Program-made: the position numbers and the translations under genes
The notes under the pieces: model-generated
Seen by the model: the letters and a program-made list of their open reading frames with translations, nothing else
Database searches by the model: none
What the model was told of the DNA's origin: nothing
Shown: positions 14,101 through 56,284 of the stretch, one piece after another
Layout of the letters: each line of letters starts with the position of its first letter
Numbering within the stretch: the first letter of the stretch is position 1
NCBI GenBank assembly: GCA_034687125.1
Contig: JAQGBZ010000179.1
Coordinates: 1 to 64,000, forward strand
Reading direction: 5' to 3'
From: Neelides folsomi
Lineage: Eukaryota; Arthropoda; Collembola; Neelipleona; Neelidae
Length of the DNA: 64,000 nucleotides

Positions 14101-16765
14101 ATGGGGCGGGGGTACGTGTTAATGTTGATGCTCCTTGGGCTCCTTGGAACAGCGAGATCTTCAAGTGAAGAGACATATTTGGAAGATGAGCTCCCCGAGG
14201 ATATTCCCGCACAGGTAATTAGCGAAAAATTAAATAATTATGACTGGGTTTATCAACAGCTAATAAATTTCTAATTTAAGGAGACCTCGGCACCTGTAGA
14301 CGAATATGAAAGTCCCTCTCCTTCAGGGGCAGTGTACTTTTTCGAGAACTTTGACGACGTCGACAGAGCTAAGAGACGATGGGTGACGTCGAGAGCCACC
14401 AAGTCAGCTGCTGACACTGTTTTTAAATATGACGGAATTTGGGATTTCGCCCTTCCCCAAAGGCTCATTTTCAACGGGGATCGGGCGTTGATTCTGAAAT
14501 CCAAAGCAAAGCACGCTGCCATTGCTGCCCGTCTCGATCGCCGCTTCGACTTCGACACTCGCCCATTTTTCGTCCAGTATGAAGTGAATTTTCAAAATGG
14601 CATGGACTGTGGTGGAGCTTACATCAAACTCCTCGGACACACAAAAGATCTCGATCTCACATCCTTCAGAGATAAAACACCTTACTCCATTATGTTCGGC
14701 CCTGATAAGTGTGGATCTGACATTAAGGTCAGCTGAACTTAAATGTTTTAAAAGCTAATTAAAACTATGGAATATAATTAAATTACGTTGCTTTTAACTA
14801 ATTGTAAGTAAGCTTGAAGTTTTATAAGCTGGATTTAATAATATTTTTATTCATTCACTTCCCAGCTTCATTTCATTTTCCAACACAAGAATCCTGTGAA
14901 TGGATCATTCGAGGAGAAACATGCAAAAAAGCCATCGAATCGTTTAGAAGAGAATTTCTCAGACAAGAAGCCACATTTGTATCGTCTCAAACTTGTAAGT
15001 TTGCCAATTTATTTATTCTCTTCTACACTTATAACTTGCAATTAATTCCATTAACCTTTATTATGTTCCAGACCCCAGACAATGGATTTGAAATTTCTGT
15101 GGACGGTTCTGTGGTCAACTCTGGAAATCTCCTTGAAGACATGGAACCTTCAGTGAATCCTCCTCGTGAAATCGAAGATCCAAGTGATGAGAAGCCAATG
15201 GATTGGGACGATCGTGAGAGAATTTCCGATCCTGATGCAACAAAACCTGACGATTGGGATGAGGACGCTCCACCAAAGATTCCGGACCCTAATGCTGTTA
15301 AGCCTACTGGGTGGCTTGAAGACGAACCTGTAATTTTAAACTGCCCTTTACATATTTCATTATTGTGGCCTTAGATCTTTGAATATTTTAATGATCTCTG
15401 TTAATTTCAATATTAGGATATGTTGGCTGACGATACAGCGACGATGCCTGAGGATTGGGACGAATCTATTGACGGGACATGGGAACCTCCAATGTTGAGC
15501 AATCCAGCATGTGAAGGAGCTGATGGATGCGGCCCTTGGAATCCTCCCCTCATCAACAATCCTGAATACAAAGGTAAATTGTTGAATAAATATGAATAAA
15601 ATTTTTAAGCTAGGTGCTGATAATTAATAAAAATTTAAATCATGATTTTATTTTAGGAAAATGGAAACCCCCAATGATTGCCAATCCGAGTTACAAAGGA
15701 AAATGGACCCGTAGGAAGATTCTCAATCCTGAATATTTTGAAGACAAGGAACCTTTCAGGATGACCCCAATTGTTAGAATAAATATAAAATTTAAATTGA
15801 CATTATATTTTGATATTAAATTAACTAATTCAATCCTTTGAATTTTAGGGAGCTGTTGGACTTGAGATTTGGTCAATGACCGATGGAATCTTGTTTGATA
15901 ATTTCATTATTGCTGATGATGAGCAAATCCTTGATGATTGGACTTCTAGGACTTATGAACTCAAAAGACGAGCTGTTGACAAGGATTCGGTAACTTTTTT
16001 GTTTCATCTCTCACATTTCATTATTTTTATCTCAATCGGGATTAATAAAATGATTTATTTTAATGAATTGAAGGAGGGTCTCATGGGTCGTCTCGTGTCT
16101 TACTCGAATGCTCATCCTTGGCTTTGGGCCATTTACATATTTGTCATTGGACTCCCCCTTGTTCTCTTTTTTACTTTCTGTTGCTCTTCTAAAGAGGTAA
16201 TTTTTTTAATGAACAATTAAGACTTGTAAACAATCAATTAATATTGTTTAATGTTTTATAATTACATTGTTTTGTTCAGGAAAAGAAACTTGCTGATGGA
16301 AAAAGCAAAAAAGAAGATGGAGTTGCTGGAGACGAAGAGCCGCTTCTTCAAGAAGATTCTGAAACAAAGGGAGAAAAGTCAAAGAAGGAAATTCGATTCG
16401 GAATGACGAAGGAACATTTGGAATCTCCGTTGGTCGCTGATGAGGAAGAGGAAGACGAGGAAGAGGAAGAAGAAGAAGAGGAGGAAGAGGAAGAACAAAC
16501 GTCAGACGAAGACGAACCGCGCCCAGATGAAGAAAACTCTCTCGGAAATACCAAGGTGGAAAGAGAAGACGTAGTTCATGCTGTAAGATCAATTTTTTAT
16601 AATCTTCAATTATCTACAGATATAAAGTGTTCTAGTTTATTTTTTAGTCGTTGTTTATAATGTAGAAGTAATATTCAATAATGTGTTAATGTAATTTGTT
16701 TTTACGTTTGACAGGGAGGAGACACAATGGATGTCCCAAGGAAACGACGATCTCGTCGTGATTGA
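14101..16765 (+). CDS. Canx: Calnexin, ER membrane lectin chaperone, 612 aa
   Basis: Ten coding exons: 14101-14214, 14281-14727, 14866-14994, 15072-15329, 15417-15573, 15657-15772, 15849-15989, 16074-16196, 16280-16582, 16715-16765. Calnexin binds monoglucosylated N-glycans on nascent glycoproteins in the ER and recruits folding enzymes. A signal peptide covers about residues 1-19. The globular lectin domain contains Cys148 and Cys182, with the same spacing as the family disulfide. The proline-rich P domain has [14 protein letters not shown]-type motif-1 repeats and GTWEPPM, GPWNPPL and GKWKPPM motif-2 repeats, and contains Cys348 and Cys354. A membrane span lies at about 468-490. The cytosolic tail carries a long Glu/Asp run and ends RKRRSRRD, like the basic ER-retention tails of the family. 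Length fits other calnexins. ATTAAA at 16822 is a likely poly(A) signal. Confidence 0.97.
16442..16498 (+). repeat. GAR purine tract coding the acidic calnexin tail
   Basis: A nearly pure GAA/GAG/GAC run in calnexin coding exon 9. It is translated as an uninterrupted acidic segment, which is typical of calnexin cytosolic tails though longer than strictly needed. Its simple-sequence nature makes it a likely site of length variation. Confidence 0.85.
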
Positions 16766-18720: not shown

Positions 18721-21700
18721 ATGGTCCGAAAAAAGGTGGATAATAGGATCCGAACACTTATCGAGAATGGGGTTCATTCATGCCATCGGTCTATGTTCGT
18801 AATTGTTGGGGACAAAGGCCGAGATCAAGTAATGTTTGATTATTTATTTCACATTATTATAATTAAACAGCTATATAATATAAATTATTGTTCGTTTAAA
18901 ATAACATAATATTAACTCATTCTTTTTCACAGGTTGTGATTCTTCATCATATTCTATCGAAAGCTGAGGTCAAAGCAAGACCAAATATATTATGGTGTTA
19001 CAAGAAGGAATTGGGATTCAGCAGGTTTGTTAAACTCCTTTTAAATACATTTTATTGACAATTCTATTATTTGTAGTATCTAATTTGTAATTTTTTGTTT
19101 TTAAATTAGTCATCGGAAGAAAAGAATGAGGCAACTTCAAAAGAAGATTCGATCTGGGAAGATTGACGTAAACGAAGACGATCCTTTCGAGCTCTTCATA
19201 GCCTCCACTAACATTCGATATTGTTACTATTCTGAAACCCATAAAATTCTCGGAAATACATTCGGGATGTGCGTCCTGCAGGATTTCGAAGCTTTGACGC
19301 CAAATCTGTTAGCAAGGACAATCGAGACTGTCGAAGGCGGAGGAATCGTCGTCATTTTGCTCAGATCTGTCTCCTCCCTCAAACAGCTTTATGCCTTAAA
19401 TATGGACGTTCATTCGAGGTTTAGGACTGAATCGCATCAAGAAATTGTTGGTCGATTCAATGAGAGGTTTAACTTAATTTTCATCCTTATTACTTTTAAT
19501 TTGTGAACATAGACTATGTTTATAATAATAATTTATTTGATTCTAGATTTATTTTATCTCTCGGCTCATGTCAGAAGTGTATTGTGATGGACGATAGTTT
19601 AAATATCCTTCCCATTTCTTCCAATGTGTTGAACATTGAGCCAATTGATGTCGGGAAAATGGAGGATTCGGCTGAAGATAAACAGCTAAAAGATTTGAAG
19701 CGAAGTATTGAAGACACGCCATTTGTTGATGTTCTTGTCAACAACTGCAAAACTTTTGATCAGGTACTAAATCCCATGATTAGTTAATATTAATGGTGTG
19801 AATTGTATTTAAAAATTAATATGTAATAGGCGAGAGCGTTATTGAAATTCATTGATGTGATTTCGGAAAAAAGCCTTAATGCGACTGTGTCTTTGACTGC
19901 TGCAAGAGGAAGAGGAAAATCGGCCGCTCTTGGATTGGCGATTGCTTCGGCTATTGCTTTTGGCTACTCAAATATTTATGTAACGAGTCCTAGCCCAGAG
20001 AATCTTCACACACTTTTTCAATTCATTTTTAAAGGTACATATTAAAATATTTTGAGACGAACTTTACAATTAACTTTTATGTACTTCAGGATTTGACGCT
20101 CTTGAATATCAAGAACACGTTGATTTTGACATTATTCAATCAACAAATCCCGAGTTTAACAAAGCGATTGTCAGGATCAATTTTTTCCGCGATCATCGAC
20201 AGACCATTCAAGTAATTTTCTATTTACACAGATTATGTTTCACTATGATGATATTAATAGAATTGTCATAACCATTCACATTTTTTTAATTATGTAGTAC
20301 ATTCATCCTTCTGATGCTCAAAAACTCGGGCAAGCTGAATTGCTTGTAATTGACGAGGCTGCCGCGATTCCGCTTCCTATTATCAAATCACTCTTTGGCC
20401 CTTATTTGATCTTTTTGGCTTCTACAATCAACGGGTACGAAGGAACGGGGCGGTCTTTGTCGCTCAAGCTTATCCAACAACTTCGAGATCAAAGCAGCAA
20501 ATTGGGAGAAGAAAACGCAAGTGAAAAGAAATCGGGGAAAATCTCCGCTCGGATTTTGAATGAAGTAAAGAATATTTTCTTTAATTTCTTTTTCAATCAT
20601 CAATTACCAGATGGGTTTTGTTTTTATAATTCTTTCAATTTTATATTCATACCTGAAACTTATATTTTACTAAAATAATAGGTCACGTTGGATGAATCCA
20701 TCCGTTATAAAAGCGGAGATGCGATCGAGAAATGGCTCACTGATATTCTCTGCTTGGATGCGACATTAACTCCGCCAATGAGTTCTGGATGTCCACCGCC
20801 AGAATCTTGTGAACTTTATTACGTTAATAGGTTAATTAAAAATGAAATTTCTGAATAATTGCAATATACATTATACAGATAATTTGGTATTATGAATACT
20901 ACTGTATAATTTGTATATGTATATGTGAATGAAAATGACTTTAATTTAACTTTTTAATAATAGAGACACGCTCTTTTGTTATCACAAAGCGTCCGAGAAT
21001 TTTCTCCTCAGACTCATGTCCCTTTATGTGGCATCACATTATAAGGTTCAATACTTTCAATTTATCTTCAATTTATGCTCATTTTCAAGATGATTTTTAT
21101 ATTAAAATTGTTTTTTTTAGAATTCACCTAACGATTTGCAACTTTTATCTGATGCGCCAGCCCATCATATATTTTGCTTACTTGGTCCTGTTGATCCCAA
21201 TAAGAAATCTTTACCCGAAGTATTTGTTGTTGTTCAAGTAAGTTCAAGATTTAAGAGGGAAATTAAAATGTAAATGTTGTTTAAATGAGAAAATTTGTAA
21301 AATCTTTTACTTCAAGGTTTGCCTCGAAGGGGAAATTTCTAGCCGAAGTATTTCTTCTGGACTTCTTCATGGAAAGAAAGCTTCTGGGGACATGATTCCT
21401 TGGACCGTGGCTCAGCAGTTTCAAGACAATGATTTCCCTTCGCTCTCTGGTGCAAGAGTCATTCGGATTGCAACTCATCCAGATTACCAACACGTAAAAA
21501 CTTTTACTTGCTATATATTAACAATAAGGTCTTTATTTGCATAATGCACTAAATGCACTTAATTGTCAAATATTGATTTATTCCTTTAAAGATGGGCTAT
21601 GGATCCAAGGCCTTGGAACTTCTTGAAAATTATTATGAAATGAAGATGGTGGATTTGGATGAAAAGCGATCATTTGTTCCTGAAAAGGCAATGAAGGTGG

Positions 21701-24049: not shown

Positions 24050-27608
<3,559 letters not shown>

Positions 27609-39600: not shown

Positions 39601-42600
39601 TTTATTACTGATGGGATTAAAAAAATGAAAGAACGGATTTTTTCTCTCTTTACAGGCCGACGCATCGCTCGAGATGGAGCAAAGGCACTTTTGTCAAGCA
39701 AGCCTCAAATATGTGTTCCTGCTCCAAGAAGTACAAGAGTGCAAAAAATATGAATTTGTTGAAACGGTGAGGGATTTACTGGCCAAAGAGGGCGAGGCTT
39801 AATGGAGGATGATTATAATTTGAGTTTTCTATGGCAGCTCCTTGGGTTCATGTACAGTTGGCTCACTTTCTACCACCAAGGGCACGAAGTGGCTACCGAC
39901 TACAAACCTTACATGACTGATCTTCAGAAGAGAATCCAAAATGTATGGAATCCCCTCAGCGCCCCTCTTTTTTAATCTTTTTTTCTCCTTTCCAGACAAG
40001 AGAAAACTTTGAAACGACGAGAGATCAAACGAAATCACTAATGAACAAAATGCTAGAAATCCGAAAGTCTGTAAGTGCTCAGACATATCCAATTTCTCTT
40101 TTTGTGATTCAAATGATTGGAGTCATTAGAACCAATTGGGAATCAATTGGACCACACGTACATTCTCATTGTATTTATTCAATCCCAAATCATACATATA
40201 TACATATATATACAAATAAAACATAAGGGTTATTTCCTAAGGATGGGATAAAGTCATATTTTAAACCGCCACCTTGTCTCAGTCCTCATTGAGTGTCGAG
40301 AATACGGTAATAGACGCGGAGGATATTTTATAACCCTGGTTTGTAATTCCAAATCCCTACCAGTTTTCCTTCATTTGAATATCACAACTGCATTTTGGAG
40401 ATCCGACTCAAAGGAGATGGGAGAAGTACATGAGAGATGTTTGAGAGGAGAAGATAATGAGTTGGAATGTCTGAATATTTGTTTTTTTATTCCAGAAGGA
40501 CCCAGGTAGCCTTGACAAAATGTATACGCGGCAGGGATACCTCTACCTGATGGAAAAGAGTAAGTCCTTTTTTTACCACCCTCTTGGCATCTCTTTGGTA
40601 GAGAGTCCCGTACGAGATCCAAAGATGGGACTCGGGGAGTCTTCAGTGCTCTAATTGCTCCTTTTTTTGTTGCAGAGGCCCTCGGGACGACGTGGAGCAA
40701 GTTCTACTGTATGTATGAGAAGGCTACGAGGAAGTTCTCGATGATTGCTTACAATCAGATTTCAGGGAAAATTGTAAGGGCTCATTGTCTTCACTATCTT
40801 TTTCAATATGAATTGAAATGTGTAGACTCCTTTGTCTATATGTTTTGATGGTGATATTGAAAACGGGGGTTTATGAGAATAAAAACATCATTTGATATCC
40901 ATTAGACTGGAACTGATGAAATCCTCCTTAAATCCTGCATTCGCCGGATGTCAGACTCGATTGACAAGAGGTTCTGCTTCGACCTCATTGCCGAGAATCG
41001 TCCTGGAGTTGTTTACACCCTTCAAGCTCTGTCGGAAGAGGATCGGAGATTATGGCTTGACGCCATGGACGGCCGAGAACCTGTAAATTTCATAATCAAT
41101 TAATTTTTAATATTAAATTCCTTCTTATTGTAAGCTATAACATAGTAGAGTATATTTAGTTTAAAGTCATTGTGGATAATCTGAGTTAGGTGTTGACTAA
41201 ATTACTTCTTTTTTAGACCTATGGGCAGCCGGGGAAGGTATCGAAAGCGGAAGAGACGTGCTTGGACGAGTTCGGAGTTTCCTTCGTCCAACAATGCATT
41301 GGAGAGCTTGAGGCTCGCGGGTTGGAGGAACAAGGGCTTTATCGTCTAGTTGGGGTCACCTCCAAAGTAATGAAGCTTCTGACCCAAGGACTCGATCGGA
41401 GGAAGAGCGACAAACTTGCCCTGTCCGATCGCTGTGAATGGGAAACGAAGACCATCACCAGCGGCCTCAAAACTTACTTCCGGAACCTCCCTGAACCCAT
41501 CATGACCTTCAGATATCACGAAGCGTTTATCGCCGCTGCAAGTGAGAACCACAGCCGGATCCGAAAATCTTTATTTTCTCTTTGCCTTATTTTTATTTTT
41601 GTCTGTAGAGCAAGAAACGAGAGTACAAAGAATATCAGATGTTCACACGCTCGTCCACCGCCTTAGTCCTCCAAACTTCCGAATTTTGGACATCCTCATT
41701 GCTCACTTACAAAGGTGAGTTGAAAATGGGCATTGTGAATTCCTGATCTTTACCTATTTTGTTTTGTTCAGTATTGCTGCCAAGTCTGAAAAGAACAAGA
41801 TGACTGTGAGTAATTTGGGGGTCTGTTTTGGTCCGACGCTCTTGAGACCTGAAGAAGAAACCGTTGCGGCCATCATGGACATCAAGTTCTGCAATGTCGT
41901 TGTCGAGATTCTTATTGAGAATTATGAGAAGGTATTTTCCCTTCATTGTTTACATCATCTTTTGATGAATGTGAACAAATAGTCATTTATTATTTTGTTA
42001 ATAGATTTTCAAGAGTAAGCCGCCACCGAGTGAATTGCCAAAAGAGGTTCCTTCCGTGCCGACCGCTGCGGTTCCGAATCACAGGACCCAGCCAAGTCCC
42101 ATTAAACACGTCAGTTTCCACAACCTCCTTTTTTGTATTATGGCCTGGCCATAGATTAATATTTAATTACAATTTATTTTTATCATGTTTTAGGGAAGCT
42201 CGTACGCTGGGAGCGATGGATCTAAGGGGTTGTATGGGGAGACGACCAGGTCGTGGGAAGCAATCTCACTCAATGCAACGGGCCTTGGGCTTCATTATCC
42301 AGGAGGGAATTCGGTTCATTCCTCCTCCCATTCCAGTTCTTCAAATCAAAGTGGCGGGGAGCATCCGAACAATTTTCATATGGGATCCCATTCTTCGATT
42401 CCCGAAAGGGACGTAGGACCCACAAACCCAGCCAAGATAAGCAGAGTCGGTTTGGTCGAGAGCAAAGGGAACAGCTACTCTCAACCTTTCCTCGACAATC
42501 CTGGTAAGATGGCGAATATTTATAAAAAAAAGAAAATTCTCATTGGCTTAAATTCTTTATTTATCATTATTTTTTTAATTACAGATCAAGTAACTTCAAA

Positions 42601-46722: not shown

Positions 46723-49700
46723 ATGGCATCATCACAACAATTTAATCTCAGATGGAACAACCATACGAACAATCTAATCCAGGTACAAGGTTTTTAACCA
46801 TCCTCCGCATACAAAGGAAACACAATAATATTTTAAACTTTTTTTAAATTTCTCCCCAGGTTTTCTTGGATCATTTCGAGAAGGAGCAAATGGTCGATGT
46901 AACTTTGAGTTGTCAGGGAAAGTTCCTCAAAGGGCATAAAATCGTCCTTGGGGCTTGCAGCCCTTATTTTCAAGTATTCCTCATATAAATTTTCATATAG
47001 TTTTATAATTTTAAAAATTAGGAAACTCTAAGATATACCTTTCTAATATACTATATATATTTATATATGTATATTAATAATATGTAATTATTTACAATTC
47101 TGTTTAAAATTTAACATTTCTTAAAATCCTTTATTATACGTGTTTAATCACTAGGAAATCTTTGATCGACATGGATCGACGCAACATCCAGTTATCATCC
47201 TCAATGGGCTCAGATTCGAGGAGATTCGAGCCATTGTTGAGTTCATGTACAGAGGAGAAGTGAAGGTAAACGAGATATTACAAGTTATTAATATTATTAG
47301 AGCGAAATGTGGTTCACTTATAAAAAGCCCCTTTGTTGCATCGACTATTATTATCTGGCGTCAATTAAATAAAATTCCAATGGCTGATTGCCATCAGGAT
47401 TGTTACAAGATGAGACTCGCTGTTCGCCTTCTCATCTTCACCTTGAGAGCATTGGGAGTCAATCAGGTTTTTAACGAGGTTTTCCTCTTGCAGGTTTGTG
47501 AGAGTGATCTCGAGAGCCTCCTCGCCACTGCTGAGAATCTTCAAATTAAGGGACTCTCCAATGTCCGGGCGACGCGTCAAGGCTCCAAATCTCCAACGTC
47601 GAATGGACTCACTGCATCGACGGTCAACCTCTCTTCAGAACCTTCAACCCGATCGGGAACTTTCCCCATTTCGTTGAATACCTCGACTGTTAGTCAGGCC
47701 AATGGTCGAAATGGTTCCACTCTACACGCAAACTCTCAAGTAACTCACAAATTGACAAAATTAATACTAATTGATTATTTAATTAACTTGATTGTTTATA
47801 TTGGATTTTAGGCTTCAATACAACAGGAAAATAATAACGATGTGGGCGGAACTCCCCTACATTTGAGGCGGAAACGGGCAAAGACGACTTCTCCTCATAA
47901 AGATGTACATCGGAATAATTAATTAATATTAGACAAATCCAATTTAAGTTGGGAGATTGAGATTTGTGATATAAATTGTTATATGACTACTCCATTAAGA
48001 TGAAGGAGTTTACATAATATACTTGTATATACTTACTTACATACTACATGTGTAATGTGTACTTGTATACTATCTGCATAATACATATTTATATGGTATA
48101 TATTTAAAAGGTGAAAGAGATGAGTCCGGAAATCAAAGATGTTCATCGGACCATCCCAACCGGGACCACTGTGTCGATTGAAGACGATAATAGCGATGAT
48201 TTGCCAATGACGATTAAAATTGATCATCCCTACATTCGTGACATTGATGAAGAGGAAGAAGTGGAATGGACAGATTCAATTCCTGTAAAGGAAACAACTG
48301 TGAGTATTTTTATTATATTACCTTCCAATTCTGTTTGCCCAATTCAATCGATTCTCATCTTATTTCCTCTCTGTTAAATATCCCGTCAAATATTCCATTA
48401 AAATAGTTTCTTCTTCTTCTTTTTTCATTCAACATTTTTTAAATCTCCGTGTCAATCAGACAATATTTTAATTGAAAAGTATTATACTTATTTATCACAT
48501 ATGTATCTATGCTATACCTATACTTAAATTATATCTTACCTATGTGAATTTGTATACCTTCAACATACATTCTATGTAGTTAGTGCATCGAATATTTCCT
48601 CTTTGATTAAACATAAATATATGTATATAATATAAAATTTAACAATAATAACTATGTAGCAGTGTGTTATACATAGGCTGAGACAAGAGGTGTAAATTGT
48701 ACATTAAAGTTAATATGTAGATCATTTACGGCATTATATTTATACCAATATGTGTGTATAACATGCTAATTAATAACATAATATTCTTCTTGACTTATTC
48801 TGTATTTCTGATAATTATCTCGGTTTTGGAACTATAGGAGAATTGTGACGGGAATCCAGAAGCAAAAGGTCAGTTTCAGCTTTCACTCTCTTTGTTTGGG
48901 GGATTTTTCCTTTTTTCAAACAAATATTTTAATTGCTTATTCTTTTTATCCCAACTTTTATTCTTTAATGCATTTCTGCATTCTTTTAAATTAGAATGTA
49001 ATATCTTTTATATTATATGGCATGAATCGATTCATCATTTATTTTTGAAATTATAATTTAAAATTTTGTAAATACCGTATAGTATATGTTTTGATACATT
49101 CCTTGATAACTATATTATACCAATATTATTAGTTTTATTCCGTTTATTATTTATGTTAAAATCTTCCATTAACTTTATATAATTATCTGTATAATAATTT
49201 AATATTCTTTCCAACTTGATTTTTGCCCCTTTCTTTGGCCACTGTGTGTTTGAGTTAGCTTGTGAGGATATTGAGATGAATGGGGTGGTTGGGTTTAGCG
49301 AGTGTAAAAAGCTCACTGAGGGTCTCATCTGCAGCTGGTCACATGTCGGAGCCGAAGGAAAAAATCCCTCGACCTCCCAACGCCTTCATGATTTTCGCCA
49401 ACGAGTGGAGGCGGAAATTGGCCTCACAAAACCCCAACGAGTCCAACAAGGAAATCAGCGTCCGTCTTGGCATCATGTGGAAAAATCTCTCTGGGGAGTC
49501 GAAGGCAAGGATTAAAAAATTATTTTAATAAGTACAAATATCTATTGTAATGTTCCTTGGTTGAAAGGTAAATTAATACTAATTGTATTAATTTTTTAAA
49601 TTATCCAGGAGGATTATTTTGCCGCGTCTCGACAAGCGAACGAAGACCATAAGAAGAAATATCCCGACTATTACTATAGTCCCAAGGAAGCTCGGATGCG

Positions 49701-49842
49701 GAAACGCTGGAAACTCCAACAACAACACGTGACTCAGCTCATCCACAGTGGACAGTACAATCCGGTTCATCTGGTCAAAGTATTCATTAAAGACGAAGAC
49801 ACGGAGGGCGGCGTGGGGAAGAAGCAAAAACTTCACGCTTAA
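46723..49842 (+). CDS. BTB domain - HMG box fusion protein, 415 aa
   Basis: Nine exons in one continuous frame: 46723-46782, 46860-46973, 47155-47265, 47494-47739, 47812-47904, 48111-48299, 48838-48868, 49335-49504, 49609-49842. Residues 1-113 form a tramtrack/bric-a-brac BTB dimerisation domain (QFNLRWNNH, VDVTLSCQGK, HKIVLGACSPYFQEIF, FMYRGEVKV). Then comes a Ser/Thr-rich linker with a basic LRRKRAK patch, and an acidic segment (DIDEEEEVEWTD). An HMG box covers about 293-370 (IPRPPNAFMIFANEWRR, NKEISVRLGIMWKNL, KKYPDYYYSPKEAR), in the SOX/MATA style. Exon 7 is a 31-base micro-exon needed to keep the frame. The HMG exon has a GC donor (AAG|GCAAGG). AATAAA is at 49889. Probably a nuclear DNA-binding regulator. 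The exon 5/6 junction (GAT|GTACAT, TTAAAAG|GTG) is the weakest link. Confidence 0.78.
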
Positions 49843-51348
49843 CGCATTCCACTCTCAATGTCCCAAGACCAAAACTCACGTTTTTTATAATAAATTGGTC
49901 GCCCTTTACCATCTCTATTTTATCTCTGTATACAAATGGACTAAAACTATTAAACTTATTCTCTACTAAATAACTTTCGCTCCTTTTCACAGGATTAACT
50001 CCGATTTGTGAGAAAATTACCAGTATGAGTTTTTAACTACATTTGTATTTAAGCCAAATTAACAACAGTTTTAGTTTTTCCTTTCTGCTCAAAAATTCAT
50101 ACTGACCAATTGTGAGACAAATGGGATGTACAATAATGTGAAAAGTAGTCAAAGTAAATATTTATAAATATTTTATGTTAAAAGTGTGGAGAAGTGAAAT
50201 GTTCATTTAACCTTCACGTTTCAACTAATTACTACATTTTATGTTACCTGCCATTTTATAGTAGAAAAAATACTTGTTTATATATGAGAGTTTTCTTTAT
50301 TTTAGTTTGATTTATTATTAAGTTTGATTTTTGATTTAATTAATCTTCAAGTTAATTGTTGAATCTTCATTTCTACTATTTGTGTTTAGAATCAAAAGAT
50401 CTTTTTGAGTTTTGAGGATTAGCAAACAAACGAAAGCATATTTAATAGAAAATTTATGTGCTACGCTACAACCGTCTCTTTAAAACTAACTACCTAATAC
50501 AATTCAATTAAACTAAACGATAATTAATAAAATAACGCTAAAATTTAAAACGCAGATTGTAATTTATAATTGTAATGGTAAAATATATAATTATTAGTCC
50601 TTTTATATAAATTTAGTTAAGGATATAAATCTAATTAAATTGATAATTTAAGGTTTATTTGAGCCAAATTGTTTTCGTAGACGCTTAAAATTATTCATGT
50701 TTGTTCATGGATAATAATTAGTCATTTCACGTTTAAGAATGTATATTATGAACTGATAACATTGATCACATGCTATTCACATCTTATTTGTGCTAAACAT
50801 AAGTTGTAAAGTTAACTACAAATGATCCTAGTAAATAGCTTGATAATAAATAACAATACAACAATTCTTGTAACAACTATATTAAGCGGCACAAGAAACG
50901 AGAAACGATTGAATAAATTAAATTGCTTCTTACAAATAGAATTCACTGCGTCTTCGTTGATGACGCCATAAGCCTGAGTTTTGTTACGTATGTAGAGATT
51001 CATTTTTGCAAAGGAGAAGTTCATGCGAAAAAACTTGCACATTGTATATTTAGCAGAAGATCGGCCAATTACATGACCAAGGGGGATGTTTATTTGTGCG
51101 CATTTAACTCCTGGTGCTTCGATCATTCAATTCATTGTGTCTTCAATTGATTCATTTTCGCACGTGTGGTGTTTTTTCGTAATTGCACTCATGGAAAAGT
51201 ACGATTCATTTTTCACACTTCCTCGTTTTTTATTTCCAACTAAGGATTCACATACATTATGAACAAATTCTCTGTATAAGACATTTGAACACTTTTGACC
51301 AATATTTATATAATAATTGACTACATCGTGTATAGAATATTGTATATA
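49843..51348. other. Spacer after the BTB-HMG gene
   Basis: Begins with the 3' untranslated region (poly(A) signal AATAAA at 49889-49894). No zinc-finger or other alternative C-terminal exon of the BTB gene was found here. A frame at 50812-51126 (minus) has no recognisable features. Confidence 0.45.
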
Positions 51349-54103: not shown

Positions 54104-56284
54104 ATGAGGTTGCATATGAGTCTTGCCGTTTTGGCGACAGTGGCCACGTTAGCTTCATCTCAATTATCCTTTGGAGGCGGAGGATCAACAACTTCAACAA
54201 CGGCATCTCCCAATGGAAGTGTTGCAGGACGTCTTGGCCTTTTAGCCGACTCTCTTGGTTAGTAATTTATTACTTAATATAATTACTAATTATCGTTAAT
54301 AAGGAAGTTGTTGAGCAGTTTCTAGAATACACTTATATTTAAATCAGATTTTAATAAATCAAGTATATTATTAGGAATTGAGCCAGTTCCACTCGGAAGC
54401 CTTCCAGAAGATACGAAAGCCTACACAGAGAATATTCCTGGGAATTACGGCGGTTCAATTCCCCAGAGTCCTTACACTGCTCCAGCTCCTCCAGGCAATT
54501 GCAAATGCACACCAAAAGATTATTGTAATGGGAATAACAACGGAGGAGGAGGACAAGGAGGAAATTACAACGGAGGCGGCGGTCAAGGCGGAAATTACAA
54601 CGGAGGTGGAGGTCAAGGAGGAAATTATAATGGAGGCGGAGGTCAAGGCGGAAAATATCCAGATAATGGGCCAATCGGTGGTGGTGGACAAGGCGGAAAA
54701 TATCCGGACAATGGTCAAATCGGCGGTGGTGGACAAGGAGGAAAATACCCAGATTCGGGCCTCATTGAAGGAGGAGGTCAAGGAGGAAGCAACCCAGAAA
54801 CCGATGGATCAGGAGTCATTGATATCAGAATTGTCAACAGGGTAAATAATTCAAGATTATTATCAATTGAAACAATAATTTTTATATTAATTATTATTAT
54901 ACTAATTATTAATTTTAAATGATATCTGCATATTTTAAATTTTAAATAATTTTTCTAGCAATGCCCAAATGGTGAAATTTTTTGCTGCGCACGTAATGAC
55001 GGCGGAAATGGAGGAAATGGTGGGAATGGAGGAATTATCCCAATTTCTCCCAACTCATGTGGAGTTAACCGAATTATCCACGTTCCCGGCCACGTTCCCG
55101 AACATGGACAAGTAAATTTAAACATAATTTTTAATCCTTTCTGTCCAAACATGACCAAAATGAGAAATTCCCAGTTTCACACTTCAGTATTTGATGTTTA
55201 TGACTCAATAGGCGGACTTTGGAGAATATCCTTGGATGGCCGTGATCCTCGGGAAAGGGAATAACTACGTTGGAGCTGGAGCCCTTCTTAATAGCTATTA
55301 CGTTCTCACAGCTGCCCACAAAGTTGCCGAATTCAGGTATAGAATTTAAACATGGTTCATTTAATAAACTATTATTAGATTTAGTATTGTCAACTTAAAT
55401 TATTTGCTCACAGGAAGAACTTTGACGTTCGTCATGGCTACACCAACTTGAAAGTGCGTTTGGGTGAATGGAATGCTCAAGATGATAGCGAGCCGAACAA
55501 AAATGTTGAAATTGAGATCGAAAGCATTGAAATTCATCCGGCATTCAACTCACAAAATCTTCAAAACGATGTCGCGATTGTGAAGCTCGCTCAGCCTATC
55601 AATCTCGAAACTTTCCCTCACATTAAGTCAGTTTGCTTGCCGACCAATGGAGCAAGCTTTTACGGCCAAAGGTATTTTTATTCTGTCATTGTACTTTTAT
55701 AAAGTCATTAAATATTCATCTAATATATAGTATGTACTATATACATATTATAGCTCATATTGAATCTTACATTATAAAAACTGAATTGATTGTAATTTCA
55801 TTATTGAATTTTTAGATGTTGGGTGGCTGGATTTGGAAAAGACGCATTTCAAACTGGGAAACATTCATATTTGATGAGGGAAGTTGATGTTCCAATTGTC
55901 GAGAGCAACGAATGTGAACAACGTCTTCGAGGAACTCGTCTTGGAAGTTATTTCAACCTTAATAGGAAAAGCTTCATTTGTGCAGGAGGAGAAGAAGGAA
56001 AGGACGCTTGCACTGTAAGCTTAAAATTCATGATTTAGTTAATCGACATTAACGATGTCAAATGAGACAAGGCGGGATTTAAAATTGTACTTATTTTGAA
56101 GGGCGATGGCGGAGCTCCACTCGTTTGTCAACAAAATGGTTATTTCAATGTTGTTGGTCTCGTCGCTTGGGGAATTGGATGTGCAGATCAAGGAGTTCCA
56201 GGCGTTTACGTCAATGTGGGAAATTACGTCAATTGGATTCAAGAACAAATCAATGGGAATGGAAATGGAAACGGCAACTACTAA
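54104..56284 (+). CDS. CLIP-domain serine protease homologue, inactive, 512 aa
   Basis: Seven exons: 54104-54257, 54375-54841, 54959-55111, 55212-55336, 55414-55671, 55816-56014, 56102-56284. A signal peptide (MRLHMSLAVLATVATLASSQ) directs secretion. A CLIP-A type domain is formed by Cys94, Cys96 and Cys102, then IDIRIVNRQC (Cys209) and a CC pair at 216-217. Between Cys102 and Cys209 lies a glycine-rich repeat stretch far longer than the usual loop. The protease-like domain has the family entry ADFGEYPWM, catalytic-type His294 (LTAAH) and Asp352 (NDVAIVKL). The catalytic serine motif reads GDGGAP, with Gly455 in place of Ser, so it cannot cleave peptides. Such homologues act as cofactors in arthropod prophenoloxidase and Toll cascades; that role here is inferred. 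AATAAA is at 56503. Confidence 0.94.
54542..54787 (+). repeat. Glycine-rich coding minisatellite
   Basis: About seven tandem units of 30-39 bases in exon 2 of the protease homologue. Early units read GGGGQGGNYN and later ones GGGGQGGKYPDNGQI. Units remain similar at the DNA level, which suggests recent expansion or ongoing homogenisation. Confidence 0.9.

What the first reader, a model, noticed from the sequence alone, without database searches (positions are those of the whole stretch)
46723..49842. One reading frame joins a BTB domain to a SOX/MATA-class HMG box
Nine exons splice without a phase conflict from a tramtrack/bric-a-brac type BTB domain to an HMG box near the C-terminus. Arthropod BTB proteins of this class usually end in zinc fingers, pipsqueak or HTH domains, and HMG-box factors normally lack BTB. 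The HMG box has RPPNAF where SOX proteins have RPMNAF, giving it a fungal MATA-like look. A dimerising HMG factor would be a new architecture as far as I can recall. The HMG exon also has an internal ATG (Met285), so a separate HMG-only gene or isoform is possible.
Basis: partly seen in the sequence, partly recalled or inferred. Interest (0 to 1): 0.75.

Follow-up and report, generated by a model that had tools for sequence, protein, structure and literature searches.

The report
Springtail BTB–HMG fusion transcription factor gene
A springtail gene joins a self-assembling BTB domain to a SOX-like DNA-binding HMG box in one protein; relatives in springtails and eleven insect orders show that this pairing is real, old and apparently overlooked.

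Summary
Nine exons at 46723-49842 (+) splice into one 415-residue frame with a tramtrack-type BTB domain (Pfam 4.7e-24) and an HMG box (4.8e-21). All nine exons align with one Allacma fusca protein (65% identity over 97%), so two adjacent genes is very unlikely. The host is a springtail, not a crustacean. The architecture is not unique to it: 57 of 126 database proteins held carry both domains, from Collembola and 11 insect orders, under unrelated automatic names. Their BTB domains form one clade (100/98), pointing to a single old fusion. Insects, a barnacle and spiders also have HMG-only proteins with a similar box; none was found in this genome. The box is 40% identical to SOX2 and 38% to a recalled fungal MAT box, so 'MATA-like' is not supported. 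Most likely it is a nuclear factor that multimerises through BTB and binds short SOX-like sites; both steps are inferred. No paper on a BTB-HMG class turned up in the listings. A new variant of tramtrack-group BTB factors.

The parts
46723..46782 (+). Exon 1 (start codon; TTK motif FNLRWN, residues 7-12)
   Evidence: motif position
46860..46973 (+). Exon 2 (BTB core; GKFLKGHK with F42)
47155..47265 (+). Exon 3 (BTB core; HPVIIL, the B3 strand used between dimers in TTK-type BTBs)
47494..47739 (+). Exon 4 (end of BTB domain, low-complexity linker)
47812..47904 (+). Exon 5 (linker; basic RRKRAK, possible nuclear signal, about 47866-47883)
   Evidence: RKRAK also in Allacma
47905..47922 (+). Read-through of exon 5 into intron 5: five codons then TAA, giving a possible BTB-only form of 213 residues
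   Evidence: sequence; no evidence that it is used
48111..48299 (+). Exon 6 (acidic linker with DDLPMTIKIDHPYIRDID, 48195-48248; SUMO-site-like IK[VI][ED])
   Evidence: 31 of 58 proteins have IK[VI][ED] in the linker, shuffled mean 0.66
48838..48868 (+). Exon 7 (31 bases, linker)
49335..49504 (+). Exon 8 (first two thirds of the HMG box, from 49364; GC splice donor)
49609..49842 (+). Exon 9 (rest of the HMG box to 49674, basic C-terminal helix, HLVKVF stretch, stop)
   Evidence: an L[VI][KRE][VI] tail match in 20 of 58 proteins only
49889..49894 (+). Polyadenylation-like hexamer (AATAAA or ATTAAA pattern; AATAAA by the sequence)

Best explanation
A single gene encodes a transcription factor of the tramtrack (TTK) BTB group whose DNA-binding module is a single, probably sequence-specific HMG box, not zinc fingers or pipsqueak. 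Shown: one frame that splices without conflict, both domains, conservation as one protein across hexapods, one clade of BTB domains. Inferred: the BTB domain forms dimers or higher multimers, as TTK-type BTBs do. A nuclear signal and a SUMO-site-like acidic stretch lie in the disordered linker. Each HMG box bends DNA at a short SOX-like (ATTGT-type) minor-groove site. The multimer thus binds clusters of weak sites cooperatively, most likely as a repressor or chromatin organiser. It arose once, when a TTK BTB was joined to a copy of an arthropod HMG-only gene, before springtails and insects parted.
For: Single frame and splice chain; both Pfam domains; collinear one-protein relatives, Allacma 65% over 97%; 57 BTB+HMG proteins, of which the 48 named ones come from Collembola and 11 insect orders; BTB clade 100/98. 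FxLRWN, F42 and the hydrophobic B3 positions (V71, I73) match those that PMC11426971 names for TTK BTBs and their hexamers (passages; mapped with a recalled LOLA sequence). HMG positions equivalent to SOX N10, F12, M13, R20, N32, S36, W43 and Y74 are kept in 54, 55, 55, 55, 52, 55, 55 and 49 of 55 rows (their role is recalled). AlphaFold model of the Allacma relative with 57 sequences: BTB mostly and HMG box strongly confident, linker mostly under 50. The Foldseek list includes hexameric CG6765, 8rc6. HMG-only relatives in insects, a barnacle and spiders.
Against: No RNA, binding or expression data. The HMG tree does not make BTB+HMG one clade (6 changes, many open forks), so a single origin rests on the BTB tree and shared domain order. 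The model's pTM is 0.40 and says nothing of multimers. A loose FxLRWN pattern in the first 60 residues is missing in 13 of 58 proteins (some are truncated or extended models), and IK[VI][ED] in 27 of 58, four of which had no linker that the script could delimit. The 50 Foldseek rows shown, of 551, are BTB structures; none shows the HMG box.
Confidence: 0.75

Rival explanations
1. A lola/mod(mdg4)-like locus: the BTB exons are shared and the HMG exons are only one of several alternative 3' ends, with a BTB-only form made by reading through exon 5.
For: The first six introns are in phase 0, which makes such exon swaps easy; read-through of exon 5 ends after five codons; PMC11426971 says many TTK factors have isoforms differing in the DNA-binding domain; several relatives are annotated as isoform X2 or X5.
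Against: Eight open frames tested between 49.7 and 53.1 kb hold no Pfam match at E 0.1, and the next stretch tested with a match is a clip-domain serine protease homologue at 54.3-56.3 kb. This was not an exhaustive scan; short exons and distant exons were not tested.
Confidence: 0.15
2. Two neighbouring genes, BTB-only and HMG-only, wrongly joined by the reader.
For: The in-frame stop just after exon 5 and Met285 in exon 8; separate BTB-only and HMG-only models exist for Lycorma (P0054, P0060, contigs of the same length).
Against: All nine exons are collinear with one Allacma protein; 57 one-protein relatives, among them long frames on short contigs, e.g. 661 aa on a contig of at most 3446 bases (P0029), as spliced RNA would give (inference; the contig was not seen).
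Confidence: 0.03
3. The HMG box is an HMGB-like, non-sequence-specific DNA bender and the protein is a chromatin architectural protein.
For: Pfam HMG_box_2 also matches (1.7e-5); RPPNAF resembles RPPSAF of HMGB1 box B.
Against: Asn at the position of SOX N10 is kept in 54 of 55 rows, where HMGB1 box B has Ser; Asn at N32 in 52 of 55; identity to HMGB1 box B 31% against 40% to SOX2.
Confidence: 0.1
4. The HMG box is of fungal mating-type (MATA) origin, for instance by transfer.
For: RPPNAF; in the tree the recalled MAT a-1 row falls beside the spider rows, support 89/78.
Against: That row has a branch of 4.87, among the long ones whose place the tool calls unsure; identity 38%, no higher than to SOX; the box occurs in insects, a barnacle and spiders.
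Confidence: 0.02

Closest known systems
TTK-type BTB transcription factors (Tramtrack, Lola, Bric-a-brac, Mod(mdg4), CG6765)
   Same: N-terminal BTB with FxLRWN, same hydrophobic B3 strand, DNA-binding domain at the far end.
   Different: HMG box in place of C2H2, HTH/pipsqueak or FLYWCH, the DNA-binding partners named in PMC11426971 (section 9 and passages read; 'HMG' occurs 0 times in its text; its figures also have 'other domain types' that I could not see).
SOX family (SOX2, SRY, SOX30)
   Same: One HMG box; conserved Asn, FM wedge, Ser and C-terminal tyrosines.
   Different: 37-41% identity, RPPNAFMIF not RPMNAFMVW, BTB domain added.
Arthropod HMG-only proteins called 'Sex-determining region Y protein', SOX-like or uncharacterized (P0064, P0065, P0067, P0122, P0124)
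   Same: 50-69% identity in the box; RPPNAF and EAR kept in 15 of 15 such rows.
   Different: No BTB domain in Pfam; own tail, with QAFGSTEIGR[FY] in P0064, P0065, P0067 and P0068.
Allacma fusca unnamed protein (P0001), Folsomia 'tramtrack beta', Orchesella 'bric-a-brac 2'
   Same: Orthologous by tree and architecture.
   Different: Names are automatic and do not mention the HMG box.

Membership tests
TTK-type BTB | FxLRWN motif at the N-terminal strand | tested here: met
   FNLRWN, residues 7-12; motif definition from PMC11426971
TTK-type BTB | large hydrophobic residues at two B3-strand positions and F42 (numbering of LOLA) | tested here: met
   V71, I73 and F42; positions from PMC11426971, mapped with a recalled LOLA sequence
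TTK-type BTB | hexamer formation | not testable with these tools
   single-chain model only
SOX family | RPMNAFMVW signature and roughly half or more identity to the SRY box (criterion recalled) | tested here: not met
   RPPNAFMIF; 37% to SRY, 40% to SOX2
sequence-specific HMG boxes (works like) | Asn at SOX position 10, FM wedge, Ser 36, Tyr 74 (meaning recalled) | tested here: met
   54, 55 and 55 (F, M), 55 and 49 of 55 rows
fungal MATA-HMG | closer to fungal MAT boxes than to SOX | tested here: inconclusive
   38% to one recalled MAT a-1 box, 40% to SOX2; tree unresolved
BTB-HMG proteins of hexapods (unnamed group) | TTK BTB and RPPNAFM HMG box in one protein, BTB inside the 100/98 clade | tested here: met

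The most novel reading that the evidence does not exclude
BTB-HMG is an unnamed, ancient class of hexapod transcription factors that presents up to six SOX-like HMG boxes on one TTK hexamer, clustering and bending DNA at dispersed SOX-like sites. It was missed because the fly and butterfly lineages seem to have lost it.
Probability: 0.35. Interest if true: 0.7.

Novelty: new variant of a known kind. Interest (0 to 1): 0.5.

Why it matters
It adds an HMG box to the DNA-binding partners known for tramtrack-group BTB domains and would give a SOX-like factor built to multimerise, the first that I know of (recall). No fly or butterfly member came up in the searches, so fly-based surveys would not show the class. 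Knock-down in Tribolium, Gryllus or Folsomia would test it directly.

Tried and rejected
Crustacean host: rejected, both trees place the gene with Collembola. Fungal MATA affinity: not supported. A second copy in this genome: none; beside the window's own two exons the search gave five matches of 34-44% identity. Alternative zinc-finger exons: of the 150 best zf-C2H2 matches scored out of 1616 candidates in this genome, none lies on the window's contig C179; the cap makes this weak. BTB-HMG outside hexapods: the barnacle query returned 13 proteins; those from barnacle and spiders are HMG-only. The search is limited to proteins sharing short words and of similar length, so this is not proof of absence. 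No Rfam match at gathering score in the window. Structure of P0001 without alignment was useless (mean pLDDT 43.5).

Literature: searches (asked only for MATA-HMG). For most hits I saw the listing only; two searches listed 20 of 54 and 20 of 26 papers. Opened: PMC11426971, passages and section 9 in full; PMC4033408, passages only (it gives 4 'Others' among 55 BTB genes of Tribolium, and 'HMG' occurs 0 times). Supplementary files were not open to me, so a mention there cannot be excluded.

Full report
The gene. From ATG 46723 to TAA 49842 on the + strand, nine exons splice to 415 residues. Seven introns are GT-AG; intron 8, inside the HMG box, is GC-AG. All introns are in phase 0 except the one between exons 7 and 8 (phase 1). 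Pfam finds BTB at residues 24-118 (4.7e-24) and HMG_box at 292-360 (4.8e-21).

One gene, not two. The best relative, P0001 of the springtail Allacma fusca, is collinear over the whole length (E 6e-167, 65% over 97%). Each of the nine exons aligns with it: identical over aligned residues, exons 1 to 9, are 17/19, 31/38, 29/37, 46/81, 19/31, 25/63, 6/11, 51/55 and 58/77. At 6 of 8 junctions both flanking residues are the same, at E6|E7 one, at E4|E5 none. Two partial models that lie near springtails depart from the alignment at the places of introns 1 (P0058) and 8 (P0059), as they would if those introns are shared; this is an inference from protein letters.

How widespread. With a local alignment test, 57 of the 126 proteins held from three searches carry both domains, 51 only BTB and 18 only HMG. 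One search had 135 hits and listed 120; the other 15 were not seen. By the names (orders assigned by me) the 57 are: Collembola 4, Ephemeroptera 2, Odonata 3, Orthoptera 3, Phasmatodea 4, Blattodea 3, Hemiptera 4, Thysanoptera 2, Hymenoptera 9, Coleoptera 12, Neuroptera 1, Siphonaptera 1, without organism name 9. No named one is from Diptera, Lepidoptera, Crustacea or Chelicerata. The search reaches only relatives sharing short exact words, so absence is not proof. Database names are automatic and contradict each other (bric-a-brac 2, tramtrack beta, lola, fruitless-like, SOX-30-like, kelch-like 4).

Origin. In a tree of BTB domains (113 rows; two of the 58 BTB+HMG proteins, the window's included, dropped as too short), the 56 BTB+HMG rows and two BTB-only rows form one clade with support 100/98. 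It lies apart from the fly BTB rows. Six BTB domains of this genome were long enough to enter, of 30 loci fetched and 88 exon-level matches; five lie on the other side of the tree and one (L012, C6:88742) just outside the clade (85/76). The tool notes that the bootstrap had not settled. The two BTB-only rows look like partial models: P0054 of Lycorma has an HMG-only counterpart, P0060, on a contig of the same length, and P0058 seems to start and end in intron. In the HMG tree (81 rows; P0047, P0053 and P0059 dropped as too short), 12 HMG-only rows, the barnacle among them, group with 92/91 (below the tool's star), and the three spider rows lie apart. Three 'HMG' rows (P0057, P0060, P0061) fall among the BTB+HMG rows and look like split or partial models. 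The tree needs 6 changes for BTB+HMG and many forks are open, so by itself it does not show a single fusion. The simplest account is an arthropod HMG-only gene, one copy of which was joined once to a TTK BTB before springtails and insects parted. In this springtail genome no HMG-only relative was found; the five other matches are 34-44% identical.

The HMG box. Window box against: this genome's C10 SOX 43%, SOX30 41%, SOX2 40%, MAT a-1 (recalled) 38%, SRY 37%, HMGB1 box B 31%, LEF1 (recalled) 27%. The positions that in SOX proteins contact bases or wedge into DNA (recalled) are kept across the family. So it is not a SOX protein by the usual signature, but it should work like one. The proline of RPPNAF is shared with HMGB1 box B as well as MAT, and does not make it fungal.

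The BTB domain. FNLRWN, F42 and V71/I73 fit the features that the study of TTK hexamers ties to dimers and to dimer-dimer contacts (PMC11426971). By a loose pattern, 45 of 58 proteins have FxLRWN in the first 60 residues. That study reports TTK BTBs as specific to arthropods, apart from a few plant cases that it puts down to lateral transfer, and names C2H2, HTH and FLYWCH as partners (section 9). An AlphaFold model of P0001 with 57 sequences gives the BTB domain block means of 83-97 (one block at 66), the HMG helices about 90-98, a long basic C-terminal helix near 85, and a linker mostly under 50; overall pTM is 0.40. Foldseek's list includes hexameric CG6765 (8rc6); the 50 rows shown of 551 are BTB structures.

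The linker. In 31 of 58 proteins it has IK[VI][ED] (shuffled mean 0.66); in 23 of the 31, by my count of that printout, IxDID follows, as in DDLPxxIKVEPPxIRDID. The window has IKID. A SUMO site is a reasonable guess; 27 of 58 lack it, four of which had no linker that the script could delimit.

Mechanism. Shown: gene structure, domains, conservation. Inferred from family knowledge: nuclear multimer, SOX-like minor-groove binding, cooperative binding of clustered sites, repression or chromatin organisation. The strongest rival is that the HMG end is one of several alternative ends; eight downstream frames tested show no other domain.

Surroundings. Near genes are unrelated: calreticulin family, NAT10, NOA36, RhoGAP, and a clip-domain serine protease homologue. 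Another TTK BTB gene with a pipsqueak exon lies on the same contig outside the window, at C179:82681.

Novelty. I found no paper describing BTB-HMG proteins (mostly listings). The proteins sit in databases, unnamed as a class. I rate it a new variant of TTK BTB factors.

Noticed in passing
window 54326-56281 (+): Clip-domain serine protease homologue (CLIP_1 0.0011, below cut-off; trypsin pieces 2e-8 to 3e-10). The active-site stretch reads GDGGAPLVC, so the catalytic serine seems lost, as in PPAF-II-like homologues (recalled); a glycine-rich repeat precedes it.
   Followed up: partly
L010 (G000:C179:82681-82974 and downstream): Second TTK-type BTB gene (QQYCLRWNN) with a pipsqueak HTH exon (PF05225 7.7e-12), about 33 kb downstream of the BTB-HMG gene.
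   Followed up: partly
P0064, P0065, P0067, P0068, P0122, P0124: Arthropod HMG-only proteins with the RPPNAF box may be a family of their own; four insect members (P0064, P0065, P0067, P0068) share a tail stretch QAFGSTEIGR[FY]. No literature search was made for them.
   Followed up: partly
window 49505-49608: The intron splitting the HMG box has a GC donor (AAG|GCAAGG); P0059, near springtails, reads on after the same residue as VQ, which suggests a GT donor there.
   Followed up: partly
window 14275-15371, 20298-20675, 24363-24848, 41217-41663: Exons of calreticulin-family (calnexin-like), NAT10, NOA36 (ZNF330) and a RhoGAP protein.
   Followed up: no
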